Source of the DNA: a virus | Virus record (IMG/VR): IMGVR_UViG_3300030329_000049 | Location: 1-29,929 of that record | Length of the DNA: 29,929 nucleotides | Direction: 5' to 3' (one strand) | In this document: positions 7,571 through 10,006 of the stretch, piece after piece | Layout: each line of letters opens with the position of its first letter | Position numbering within the stretch: the first letter of the stretch is position 1 | Made by a program: the position numbers and the translations under genes | Notes under the pieces: model-generated | What the model was told of the DNA's origin: nothing | Databases searched by the model: none | What the model saw: the letters and a program-made list of their open reading frames with translations, nothing else

Positions 7571-7708
7571 CCGAAATATATTGGGATAATCGAAAGACCC
7601 TAGTTGACACTATGAAAGTATAGGTTCCAGGAGAACTAAAATCGAGGTTTCGACCCGTAAGGATAATCAGCCGCTTAACATTAACAACAACCCAAGGAGG
7701 AACTTATT
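7571..7708 (+). ncRNA. Structured leader of the major capsid gene (candidate)
   Basis: These 138 bases between scaffold and capsid encode no gene but hold a run of small inverted repeats. They are GGG/CCC (7583-7585 with 7598-7600), CTAT/ATAG (7610-7613 with 7620-7623), GTTC/GAAC (7624-7627 with 7633-7636) and GGT-TTCG-ACC (7646-7655, a UUCG tetraloop). The last 30 bases are unpaired, A/C-rich, and lead to a very strong ribosome-binding site AAGGAGG (7694-7700), eight bases before the ATG. A row of hairpins before the most highly expressed structural gene suggests a 5' stabilising or processing element. I cannot assign a known RNA family. Confidence 0.4.
7598..7618 (+). promoter_or_regulatory. 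Promoter-like GACACTATGAAAG element before the capsid gene
   Basis: GACACTATG at 7606-7614 recurs exactly at 20820-20828 before the tail fibre gene, and CACTATG recurs at 2429 and 26692. The core CACTAT equals the T7-class promoter core. A non-coding position 95 bases before the capsid start fits a promoter for head genes. There is no TAAT at the upstream T7 spacing here (CCCT instead). TTGACA at 7604-7609 overlaps the element, but no sigma70 -10 box lies at 17 bases. Confidence 0.35.
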
Positions 7709-8584
7709 ATGAGTTCACAAATAACTACTTCTTTCGTTGAACAGTATAGCTCTAATGTTGCTATGCTTTCTCAACAAATGGGAAGTAAACTTAGAGGTTC
7801 TGTTGATGTGGAAACTGTTAGAGGTAAAAACGCATTCTTCGATCAAGTCGGAGTAACAGCTGCTCAATTAAGAACGAGCAGACATGGCGATACACCTCAA
7901 ATAGACACGCCTCACAGCAGAAGAAGATTGAGCTTGGCTGACTACGAATGGGCTGACTTAGTTGACGATGTCGACAAAGTTAGAATGCTTGTAGACCCGA
8001 CAAGTTCATACGCAAGAGCAGCGGCAGCAGCTATGAACAGAGCAATGGATGATGTTATTATAACAGCGTTCAACGCATCTGCGAATACTGGTGTTGCTGG
8101 TGGTACATCTACGGCTCTACCTTCTGGACAAAAAACAGCAACTTCAGACCAATCAGATGGTTTGACGATTGCTAAACTTTTGGCTGCGAAGAAAATCCTA
8201 GATAACAACGATGTTGACCCTTCATTGAAGAGATATATCGTTTGTGGACCACAACAGATCTCGGATCTATTAGGAACTACACAAGTAACTAGCTCTGACT
8301 ATAACACAGTTAAAGCTCTTGCTGAAGGTAGTATCAATTCCTACTTAGGATTTGAGTTTATAATGTCAACAAGATTGAACAAGGATGCAACTAACACTAC
8401 TGACAGATTAGTTTTTGCATATACTGAAGATGCTATCAAGTTAGGTATCGGTAAGGATATTTCTGCAAAAATTTCTGAAAGAGCTGATAAAAGCTACAGT
8501 ACACAAGTATATTACTGTATGTCGCTTGGAGCAGTTCGTATGGAAGAAGAGAAAGTTGTTCAAATTCCTTGTCATGAAGCATAA
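7709..8584 (+). CDS. Major capsid protein
   Basis: This 291-residue protein builds the icosahedral shell (HK97-like fold, the Phage_capsid_2-type group found in marine podoviruses). The family look is clear. There is an N-terminal helix region (ITTSFVEQYSSNVAMLSQQMGSKL), then RTSRHGDTPQIDTPHSRRRLSLADYEWADLVDDVDK (about residues 55-90), a long spine helix SYARAAAAAMNRAMDDVI, a glycine-rich variable loop (TGVAGGTSTALPSG), and a C-terminal domain with VCGPQQISDLLG and GFEFIMSTRL. Its ribosome-binding site AAGGAGG is the best in the window and the codons are less extreme in AT than in the neighbours, as expected for a highly expressed protein. An opposite-strand ORF at 7942-8208 is a shadow. Confidence 0.95.
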   Translation: MSSQITTSFVEQYSSNVAMLSQQMGSKLRGSVDVETVRGKNAFFDQVGVTAAQLRTSRHGDTPQIDTPHSRRRLSLADYEWADLVDDVDKVRMLVDPTSSYARAAAAAMNRAMDDVIITAFNASANTGVAGGTSTALPSGQKTATSDQSDGLTIAKLLAAKKILDNNDVDPSLKRYIVCGPQQISDLLGTTQVTSSDYNTVKALAEGSINSYLGFEFIMSTRLNKDATNTTDRLVFAYTEDAIKLGIGKDISAKISERADKSYSTQVYYCMSLGAVRMEEEKVVQIPCHEA

Positions 8585-8608
8585 TCAATAGAATAGGAGA
8601 AAATCACA

Positions 8609-9088
8609 ATGGGAACTAAAAACTCAGACTTAGTAGCAAATTTTGAAGCTACGCCACCAGTTCTTACAGATAGCAGCCTTCTTCACGGAGTAGTTCGTGT
8701 TGCACAAGGTACTATAGTTGTAGCAGCTGGCGATAGTGATGATGACGATATTGTTATGCTTGCACCTATACCAAGTAATGCTGTCGTTCCACAAATTTGG
8801 ATCGGTTCAGATACACTTGGAGGTTCATGTACTTTCAATGTTGGAATTTATCAAAGTGATGGAACAGTAGTAGACGAAGATTACTTCGCAACTGCGGTGG
8901 CTGATGCTGGCGCAATGGCTGATGTAAGACACGAAGCTGCTGACATCAATACTGCTGGAAAAGCAATGTGGGAAATGGCTGGAGCGTCAAGCGATCCTGG
9001 AGGTTACTACTACATAGCGGCTACTATGGCTGCTGCGGGTGGAACTGAAGGTGATATGTCGTTCTGCATTAACTATGTTTGTAACTAG
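8609..9088 (+). CDS. Putative head decoration / minor structural protein
   Basis: This 159-residue, acidic, alanine- and glycine-rich protein immediately follows the capsid gene and has its own ribosome-binding site (ATAGGAG). The middle is a predicted beta-rich body: GVVRVAQGTIVVAAGDSDDDDIVMLAPIPSNAVVPQIWIG and CTFNVGIYQSDGTVV. The composition and less AT-biased codons resemble the capsid gene, suggesting high expression. In related phages the gene after the capsid often encodes a head decoration or head-fibre protein. I infer that role from position and style; I do not recognise a named domain. Confidence 0.65.
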   Translation: MGTKNSDLVANFEATPPVLTDSSLLHGVVRVAQGTIVVAAGDSDDDDIVMLAPIPSNAVVPQIWIGSDTLGGSCTFNVGIYQSDGTVVDEDYFATAVADAGAMADVRHEAADINTAGKAMWEMAGASSDPGGYYYIAATMAAAGGTEGDMSFCINYVCN

Positions 9089-9099
9089 CAAATAGAATT

Positions 9100-9133
9100 T
9101 TAGGCGGGGGAAGCGAGAGTGGAACCCGCCTAA
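9100..9133 (+). promoter_or_regulatory. Hairpin with GGAA/GGAA internal loop after the capsid genes
   Basis: TTAGGCGGG (9100-9108) pairs perfectly with CCCGCCTAA (9125-9133). Inside, GGAA (9109-9112) faces GGAA (9121-9124), which can form four consecutive G-A pairs. These are capped by G-U/C-G pairs and a GAGA tetraloop of the GNRA class (9115-9118). No T-tract follows, so it is not a standard intrinsic terminator. It may stop exonucleases at the 3' end of capsid mRNA, attenuate transcription, or be a processing or protein-binding site. The next ATG is at 9140, so the hairpin could also hinder its translation. Confidence 0.6.
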
Positions 9134-9139
9134 GATGCA

Positions 9140-9346
9140 ATGATAAAAAAGTTAGATAAACCAAAACTTGTCTTACATTTTAAAAGTGGAAATTATATTT
9201 ACCGATATGTTTTGGTAGACAGATTTAAAAACGATAACAAGTATCATTATGGTTTTGATACTAAAGAAGAATTAACTGAAGCTGAAATATTTGCTTTGGT
9301 AAAACCAAGAACATTAAGAAGAAAATATATAATTAAAAAGGAATAG
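9140..9346 (+). CDS. Small protein with YRYxLVDxF motif
   Basis: This 68-residue basic protein starts six bases after the hairpin, with no clear ribosome-binding site. Its N-terminal half reads KPKLVLHFKSGNYIYRYVLVDRFK; the segment YIYRYVLVDRF is shared with the protein encoded at 28217 (YVYRYILVDKF). Its end is strongly basic (RTLRRKYIIKKE). Function unknown; it is probably a small nucleic-acid- or virion-associated protein. Confidence 0.65.
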   Translation: MIKKLDKPKLVLHFKSGNYIYRYVLVDRFKNDNKYHYGFDTKEELTEAEIFALVKPRTLRRKYIIKKE

Positions 9347-9347
9347 T

Positions 9348-9416
9348 ATGTACGGAAGTAAAAAAAGTAGACCACCAAAAAAACCTAAAACAAAACCAAA
9401 ACCAAAAAATAGATAA
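9348..9416 (+). CDS. 22-residue lysine/proline-rich microprotein
   Basis: The ATG at 9348 follows AAGGA (9338-9342) and opens a 22-codon frame, MYGSKKSRPPKKPKTKPKPK then NR, stopping at 9416. The next gene's ribosome-binding site AAAGGA lies at its stop. About half the residues are Lys/Arg and a quarter are Pro. Tiny basic ORFs at this place, between head and tail-tube genes, are common in marine podoviruses. It could bind DNA or RNA, but that is inference from charge. Confidence 0.5.
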   Translation: MYGSKKSRPPKKPKTKPKPKNR

Positions 9417-9424
9417 AGGATAAC

Positions 9425-10006
9425 ATGGCATCAGTAGTTCAAATTTGTAATTCAGCATTAAATCAATTAGGCGCAAGTTCAATTACAGCTCTTACAGATG
9501 ATAGTAAAAATGCTAGATTATGTAATGAAAGATATACAACAATTAGAGATGCAGTATTTAGAACGCATCCTTGGAATTGTTTAATTAAAAGAGTTCAATT
9601 AGCACAAGATAGCGATACTCCAGCTTGGGGTTTTGATTATCAATATACTTTACCCGCAGATTGTTTAAGAATTTTAGGAATTAAAGATTACAACGCAGAT
9701 TACAAAGTTGAAGGTAGAAAATTATTAATTAGTGAAAGTGAAGTATATTTAATTTATTTAGCACAAATAACTGATGTTAATCAATTAGATGTTTTATTAA
9801 GAGAAACTATCTCTGCACATTTAGCGCAAGATATTGCTTATGCTATAACTGCTAATATGCAAGTTGCAAATCTAATGGCAGAAAAATATCAAGCTAAATT
9901 ATCAGAGGCAAGACACGCAGACGCTAGCGAAGGTTACAATACTAATCCAGAGTTAGCTCCAACAGATCAAATCATAACTGAAGATTTTTTAAACAGTAGA
10001 TATTAA
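9425..10006 (+). CDS. Tail tubular protein A (T7 gp11-like adaptor)
   Basis: This 193-residue protein matches the T7 gp11 pattern. Its conserved N-terminus is VVQICNSALNQLGASSITALTDDSKNARLCNERY (residues 4-37), with the following helix RDAVFRTHPWNCLIKR. The strand region WGFDYQYTLPADCLRILGI and a C-terminal helix bundle (LRETISAHLAQDIAYAIT... MAEKYQAKLSEAR) complete it. Twelve copies join the portal to the nozzle. It has an AAAGGA ribosome-binding site and lies directly before its partner gp12-like gene. Confidence 0.92.
   Translation: MASVVQICNSALNQLGASSITALTDDSKNARLCNERYTTIRDAVFRTHPWNCLIKRVQLAQDSDTPAWGFDYQYTLPADCLRILGIKDYNADYKVEGRKLLISESEVYLIYLAQITDVNQLDVLLRETISAHLAQDIAYAITANMQVANLMAEKYQAKLSEARHADASEGYNTNPELAPTDQIITEDFLNSRY

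What the first reader, a model, noticed from the sequence alone, without database searches (positions are those of the whole stretch)
9100..9133. Hairpin with a palindromic GGAA/GGAA internal loop and GNRA cap
A perfect 9-bp stem encloses GGAA facing GGAA, able to form four tandem G-A pairs, then a 2-bp stem and a GAGA tetraloop. This is far more ordered than a chance inverted repeat and lacks the U-tract of a terminator. It sits just after the highly expressed head genes, so a 3'-end stabiliser, processing site or protein-binding RNA is plausible.
Basis: seen in the sequence. Interest (0 to 1): 0.55.

Follow-up and report, generated by a model that had tools for sequence, protein, structure and literature searches.

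The report
Shared hairpin after SAR11-phage capsid genes
Viruses that infect the ocean's most abundant bacteria place a small RNA hairpin with a nearly fixed tip right after the genes for their most abundant head proteins, where it probably marks and protects the end of that message; unrelated viruses of the same host share the tip, and it has no entry in the RNA-family library.

Summary
The hairpin at 9097-9136 is real, and it is an RNA feature of the coding strand. The window is an HTVC010P-type pelagiphage fragment. The hairpin starts 8 nt after the stop of a cement-protein gene that follows the major capsid gene, and ends 3 nt before the next start codon. Of 65 capsid-anchored sequences, 65 carry a strong hairpin at the end of the head-gene block, 9 nt (median) after the stop. 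Thirty-two have this cap, (R)AAGCGAGAGUGGA. The stem covaries strongly (covariation score 0.63 against 0.17 shuffled, 0 of 500 shuffles). The inner C-G pair swaps to G-C in cap-blind sets. The same cap on different stems recurs in other SAR11-phage lineages: HTVC023P-type, HTVC103P-type, and contigs related to HTVC011P/025P and HTVC008M. It has no Rfam match and was not found in 385 alphaproteobacterial or 297 presumed SAR11 genomes. I read it as a 3'-boundary element that stabilises the messages of abundant proteins and separates them from the next gene (about 0.45). Partial termination, nuclease processing and protein recognition remain open. Two corrections: only the inner part of the GGAA/GGAA loop is conserved, and some homologous sites carry U-tract terminators instead.

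The parts
9097..9136 (+). whole hairpin: 12-bp stem (one U.G) closed by a 16-nt cap
   Evidence: R1 match at 9101-9132, E 1.6e-9
9109..9124 (+). cap GGAA-GC-GAGA-GU-GGAA: near-fixed module AAGCGAGAGUGGA with GNRA loop, C-G and G.U pairs, and a symmetric A/G internal loop
   Evidence: same cap on many different stems; conserved in cap-blind anchored sets
9097..9108 (+). 5' arm ATTTTAGGCGGG
   Evidence: covaries with the 3' arm
9125..9136 (+). 3' arm CCCGCCTAAGAT; not followed by a U-tract
7709..8584 (+). major capsid protein gene (291 aa), phrog_3437
   Evidence: E 2.1e-93
8609..9088 (+). upstream gene, 159 aa, predicted capsid cement protein; its stop is 8 nt before the stem
   Evidence: AlphaFold2 mean pLDDT 73.9; Foldseek best hit cyanophage Pam1 capsid chain 7eel_H, E 2.9e-4; also chains of phages GP4, KHP30, BPP-1
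9140..9346 (+). downstream gene, 68 aa, unknown function; ATG 3 nt after the stem
   Evidence: annotated as hypothetical in HTVC035P, Lederberg, HTVC203P
9425..10006 (+). tail protein (tail tubular A type), phrog_394
   Evidence: E 1.5e-53

Best explanation
It is an intercistronic RNA boundary element at the 3' end of the head-protein message of SAR11 phages. Shown: the RNA folds as a covarying stem on the coding strand, stays about 9 nt behind the last head-gene stop, and carries a near-fixed cap. Inferred: the late operon is transcribed through it by host polymerase. The hairpin then blocks 3'-to-5' exonucleases once the transcript is cut or ends downstream, so the capsid and cement part outlives the tail part, and it screens the next start codon. 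Both effects would raise the ratio of head proteins to downstream products. The cap (GNRA loop, C-G, G.U, sheared A-G pairs) acts as a robust, exchangeable lid and may also be read by a host factor.
For: Position: 64 of the 80 capsid-anchored loci plus the window reach 760 nt downstream; all 65 have a stem of 8 bp or more. Stop-to-stem distance is median 9, SD 3.4 (65 of 65); stem-to-ATG is median 4, SD 23 (61 of 65). The element therefore tracks the upstream gene. When the cement gene is absent it sits right after the capsid gene (16 of 65; Greip, HTVC024P, HTVC100P). It persists over 2 upstream and 5 downstream gene clusters. RNA: covariation score 0.630 vs 0.166 shuffled, 0 of 500 (A1, 90 sequences); cap-blind A5, 48 sequences, 0.572 vs 0.146, inner pair CG 42 / GC 6. 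Strand: G.U 56 vs A.C 5 in a strand-neutral set of 115. Upstream products expected to be abundant: capsid, cement, Hsp20 in HTVC103P. U-tract terminators and GNRA hairpins replace it at the same site, as interchangeable 3'-end structures would. Context: 102 of 117 dereplicated hairpins lie between a stop and a start on the same strand.
Against: No RNA data: neither a 3' end nor a half-life was seen. Near-invariance of the cap is not explained by predicted stability: 1712 of 5000 random 16-mers fold as well on the same stem and 28 of 48 single changes are neutral or better by ViennaRNA (the model is poor for sheared G-A). In the HTVC023P-type set the upstream gene (Pam3_Gp34/phrog_2402) is of unknown abundance and fold. 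In that set 40 of 80 tails have at least 5 T in 8, which suits termination. One host strain supports phages with and without the cap.
Confidence: 0.45

Rival explanations
1. A partial transcription terminator or pause site that lowers transcription of the tail genes after the head genes, like T7 T-phi (recalled), here acting without a proper U-tract or with a host factor.
For: Homologous sites carry U-tract terminators: at least 5 T of 8 in 5 of 7 'other' and 3 of 15 GNRA4 hairpins. 40 of 80 HTVC023P-type tails are T-rich. GC-rich stem.
Against: 0 of 32 capsid-site hairpins with this cap, 0 of 6 type B and 0 of 5 type C have the U-tract; only 5 of 80 HTVC023P-type tails start with TTTT. A fixed cap is not needed for intrinsic termination. 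The next start codon follows at once.
Confidence: 0.2
2. A protein-binding RNA whose cap is read by a SAR11 protein (or a shared phage protein), repressing or timing translation of the next gene or recruiting a factor to the upstream message.
For: Near-fixed 13-nt cap on many unrelated stems, shared by several unrelated pelagiphage lineages; invariance beyond predicted stability. The start codon is often 2-10 nt after the stem.
Against: Phages of the same host HTCC1062 use other caps at the same site, e.g. HTVC010P and HTVC028P. Downstream genes and distances vary, so the next start is not a constant target. CsrA, an obvious GGA reader, was found in 0 of 31 presumed host-family genomes. R1 has no match in 297 such genomes.
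Confidence: 0.2
3. An endonuclease processing site (RNase III or similar), as in T7 late mRNA (recalled), cutting the polycistronic message between head and tail genes.
For: Intercistronic position; RNase III family found in 25 of 31 presumed host-family genomes; the stacked helix with A-G pairs is longer than the Watson-Crick stem.
Against: The stem is short (12 bp plus cap) for classic RNase III substrates (recalled rule). Cutting would not need a fixed GNRA-capped tip. No cleavage data.
Confidence: 0.1

Closest known systems
Phage intercistronic stabilising hairpins such as the C(UUCG)G hairpins of T4 (recalled; not in the passages seen of PMC3014915)
   Same: stable hairpin with a special loop between co-directional phage genes, without a clear terminator tail
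   Different: different cap (GAGA plus A-G internal loop); one site, usually after abundant-protein genes; shared across unrelated phages of one host group
T7 T-phi terminator after gene 10 (recalled)
   Same: hairpin directly after the capsid gene, before tail genes
   Different: no U-tract here (0 of 32); HTVC010P-type Skadi encodes no RNA polymerase (PMC10504331, passages)
Three consecutive sheared G-A pairs, 3x3 loop 5'GGA/3'AAG (Chen et al. 2005, seen only as a reference entry in PMC5393185)
   Same: the window's inner loop GAA/GGA has the sequence I recall for this loop
   Different: that is a building block, not a functional family; the third position is variable here
Cand. P. ubique 'single bulged hairpin' near rhtB (Meyer et al. 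2009, PMC2704228, section 10 read)
   Same: SAR11-associated covarying hairpin with conserved loop; about half followed by poly-U
   Different: host chromosomal; figure and alignment not seen. My phage model has no match in 297 presumed SAR11 genomes

Membership tests
Intrinsic (Rho-independent) terminator | GC-rich stem followed by a U-tract | tested here: not met
   window tail gcaatgat has 2 T of 8; 0 of 32 sequences with this cap at the capsid site; one search lists no terminator here. In HTVC023P-type relatives 40 of 80 tails are T-rich
Any Rfam 15 family | match at gathering score | tested here: not met
   0 matches in the window; at E up to 10 only sub-threshold snoRNA and lncRNA matches
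T4-type C(UUCG)G intercistronic hairpins | UUCG tetraloop closed by C-G | tested here: not met
   loop is GAGA; variants UAGC, GCAA, GAAA, GUAA
Phage intercistronic stabilising hairpin (functional kind) | lies between stop and start of co-directional genes | tested here: met
   102 of 117 dereplicated hairpins
Phage intercistronic stabilising hairpin (functional kind) | raises half-life of the upstream message | not testable with these tools
   needs RNA from infected cells
CsrA/RsmA binding hairpin | host encodes CsrA | tested here: not met
   PF02599 in 0 of 31 presumed host-family genomes; control rang in 3 of 14 genomes
Kink-turn | asymmetric 3-nt bulge next to tandem G-A pairs (recalled) | tested here: not met
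   the internal loop is symmetric, 3x3 or 4x4
RNase III processing site | cleavage in the stem | not testable with these tools
   RNase III family present in 25 of 31 presumed host-family genomes; no cleavage data

The most novel reading that the evidence does not exclude
The cap is a host-specific RNA recognition element. Unrelated SAR11 phage lineages have converged on, or exchange, one 13-nt module that a SAR11 factor reads to protect or route phage messages of abundant proteins. In the HTVC023P- and HTVC103P-type phages it comes as a cassette with an upstream self-complementary six-mer.
Probability: 0.25. Interest if true: 0.8.

Novelty: new variant of a known kind. Interest (0 to 1): 0.58.

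Why it matters
HTVC023P-type and HTVC010P-type are named the two most abundant pelagiphage groups in the ocean (PMC12753301, passage), and members of both carry this element. The Skadi paper reports finding no terminators or RNA switches (PMC10504331, passage), while nine Skadi records (1-8 and 10) match this site at 93% identity (Skadi-5 also by R1). It gives a concrete, testable RNA signal for how streamlined phages using host polymerase set protein ratios. If the cap is read by a host factor, it opens RNA-level host adaptation in SAR11 phages.

Tried and rejected
DNA-level element: disfavoured, because G.U (56) far exceeds A.C (5) mismatches in a strand-neutral set. Chance inverted repeat: rejected by covariation and by context. 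The pattern's stem lengths are bimodal: 199 of 278 viral hits have 6 bp or more, against 0 of 119 genome hits. Dropped rows: the 79 viral hits with shorter stems are treated as chance; 66 of 79 lie in open frames of at least 100 codons, but so do 62 of 199 of the others. In the capsid set 16 of 80 loci were left out (too short downstream, or the capsid match incomplete; 64 loci and the window were used). From the cap-blind set 33 of 145 were left out (27 loops under 10 nt, 6 odd loops). Conditioned data: A1 was selected for the cap and for 6 or more pairs, so its inner helix is fixed by construction and its pairing percentage is inflated; A5 was selected only for a best hairpin with a long even loop.

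Stability-only explanation of the cap: weak. Host origin of the module: no match, but these searches used strict filters, scored 18-24 candidates per genome, and the host family is inferred from size and G+C (0.31-0.32), not from names; no positive control existed inside those genome sets. Rfam ffh as a SAR11 marker was useless because it is widespread in the class. Upstream protein of the HTVC023P-type group as an SSB: inconclusive, no PDB fold hit at E<=0.001 (weak OB-fold hits only). Literature: searches found no description of this hairpin; only open-licence PMC papers are searched. The main HTVC010P-type genomics paper was not held.

Full report
What is there. The window is a virus record of the HTVC010P pelagiphage type: a blastn of 7709-9430 finds 22 phage records, all Pelagibacter phages. 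The reported hairpin is exactly as described and extends to 12 pairs, 9097-9136. It lies between an ORF ending at 9088 and an ATG at 9140. The gene before that ORF is the major capsid protein (phrog_3437). The ORF itself (159 aa) has no clear sequence family. Its AlphaFold2 model (mean pLDDT 73.9) is closest to a chain of the cyanophage Pam1 capsid (7eel_H, E 2.9e-4), with weaker hits to capsid chains of phages GP4, KHP30/KHP40 (titled trimeric cement) and BPP-1; I take it as a capsid cement protein, at moderate confidence.

Chance. The local fold has z -5.5, with 0 of 200 shuffles as good. By stem score alone it is the best hairpin in the window, but 3 of 20 dinucleotide shuffles of the whole window contain one at least as good. 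Stem strength alone would not prove function.

Homologous positions. From 80 capsid-gene relatives (best 80 of 595), 64 plus the window were used, each with 760 nt or more downstream. All 65 have a best hairpin of 8 bp or more at the end of the head block: this cap 32, cap B (GCGGGAGACUUAA) 6, cap C (UGAAAUA..) 5, GNRA tetraloops 15, other 7. A U-tract (at least 5 T in 8) follows 0 of 32, 0 of 6, 0 of 5, 3 of 15 and 5 of 7. The upstream neighbour is a cement-type gene in 49 and the capsid gene itself in 16; downstream neighbours fall in five clusters. The stem starts 4-21 nt after the upstream stop (median 9, SD 3.4, 65 of 65), whereas the distance to the next ATG varies widely (median 4, SD 23, 61 of 65). 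The element belongs to the end of the upstream block.

Covariation. On 90 distinct hairpins all nine stem pairs change on both sides; covariation 0.630 vs 0.166 in shuffles (0 of 500) and at most 0.147 when slid. That set was selected for cap and stem. A cap-blind set, anchored on the capsid gene or on the phrog_2402 gene, gave 48 distinct hairpins from 112 of 145 loci: covariation 0.572 vs 0.146, and the inner pair itself is CG in 42 and GC in 6. In a strand-neutral set of 115, G.U pairs number 56 and A.C only 5, so the structure is in RNA of the coding strand.

The cap. Anchored on phrog_2402 (best 80 of 597), 80 of 80 loci have a hairpin after the stop, with cores GCGAGAGU 58, GCUAGCGU 18, GGGAGACU 2 and GCGAGAGG 2. 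So the architecture is: GNRA or UAGC loop, C-G or G-C, G.U, then a symmetric A/G loop. The inner loop of the window, GAA facing GGA, fits the 3x3 loop with three consecutive sheared G-A pairs that I recall from Chen et al. 2005 (seen only as a reference); no structure was tested here. ViennaRNA gives no special stability.

Spread. Whole-record searches with the covariance model ring in 8 of 20 named pelagiphages: HTVC035P, HTVC203P, Skadi-5, Greip, HTVC024P, HTVC100P (all HTVC010P-type), HTVC027P (HTVC023P-type, cap variant) and HTVC103P. They are silent in 12: Lederberg, HTVC010P, HTVC028P, HTVC023P, HTVC008M, HTVC011P, HTVC019P, HTVC025P, HTVC041P, Gjalp, Mosig and HTVC115P. They are silent in 6 of 6 records of other or unknown hosts (023Pt_psg01, DSL-LC04, ZP6, Melnitz-3, HMO-2011, P-SSP7) (E limits 0.01, 0.1, 1). 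Contigs extend the list: L221, whose capsid protein is 81.5% identical to HTVC025P (an autographivirus), and L213, whose gp5-like protein is 92.9% identical to HTVC008M; L246 has an Hsp20 identical to HTVC103P. A blastn of 9085-9150 over 50,697 phage records finds 15, all pelagiphages. No match in 385 alphaproteobacterial genomes or in 297 genomes of a family I take for the hosts by size and G+C. Several silent pelagiphages still have some other hairpin at the same kind of site; HTVC023P has essentially no gap at the phrog_2402-primase boundary.

Mechanism. Constant distance to the stop of a head gene, replacement by terminators or GNRA hairpins at the same site, and location after products expected to be needed in bulk (capsid, cement, Hsp20) fit a 3' boundary of a stable message. 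Shown: RNA fold, position, conservation. Inferred: high expression, exonuclease blocking, weaker expression of the next gene. The near-fixed cap in several phage lineages of one host is the part this does not explain, and it keeps protein recognition alive. Against strict recognition, HTCC1062 phages without the cap exist. Against excluding termination, half of the HTVC023P-type tails are T-rich.

Known things. No Rfam family. The Skadi paper reports no terminators or switches (passages). Meyer et al. 2009 describe a host hairpin near rhtB, half with poly-U (section read); I could not see its figure, and my model does not match presumed host genomes. T4 and T7 parallels are recalled.

Verdict. 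A real, covarying RNA element with no Rfam entry and no description in the papers that I could search; new variant of a known kind (phage intercistronic hairpin). Interest is raised by its presence in several lineages of the most abundant ocean phages.

Noticed in passing
upstream of type-A hairpins in non-capsid families, e.g. L209 1039-1044, L576 1669-1674: A 6-nt or longer self-complementary sequence (CCTAGG, GTGCAC, TTGCAA, GGTACC, GGCGCC, CCTGCAGG) sits just before the hairpin in 74 of 90 dereplicated non-capsid hairpins, against 20% of shuffled flanks; 80 of 80 in the phrog_2402 set (78 CCTAGG, 2 CCTGCAGG). Related sequences are not independent. Its sequence varies while self-complementarity stays.
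   Followed up: partly
L020, L025, L026, L038, L044, L074; L031, L036, L041, L050, L065; L578 2176-2255, L579 2173-2250: Other fixed caps at the same post-capsid site: GCGGGAGACUUAA (B), UGAAAUA.. (C), and AUUAACACAGACAA in HTVC041P and Gjalp.
   Followed up: partly
L452-L531 and Lederberg L447 3366: A recurrent C(UAGC)G tetraloop replaces GAGA in 18 of 80 phrog_2402 loci and seems present in a different cap of Lederberg; I know no name for it.
   Followed up: no
L233 1290-1420: Two tandem copies of the AAGCGAGAGTGGA module in a 47 kb contig, about 35-40 nt apart.
   Followed up: no
window 7571-7708: 138-nt gap upstream of the capsid gene with a promoter-like match ending at 7710; possible late promoter.
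   Followed up: no
L449 2886-3332 (Skadi-5 gene 7): The post-capsid protein annotated as a 'TonB-dependent receptor domain protein' in Skadi sits at the position of the cement-like protein of the window; the annotation may be wrong.
   Followed up: no
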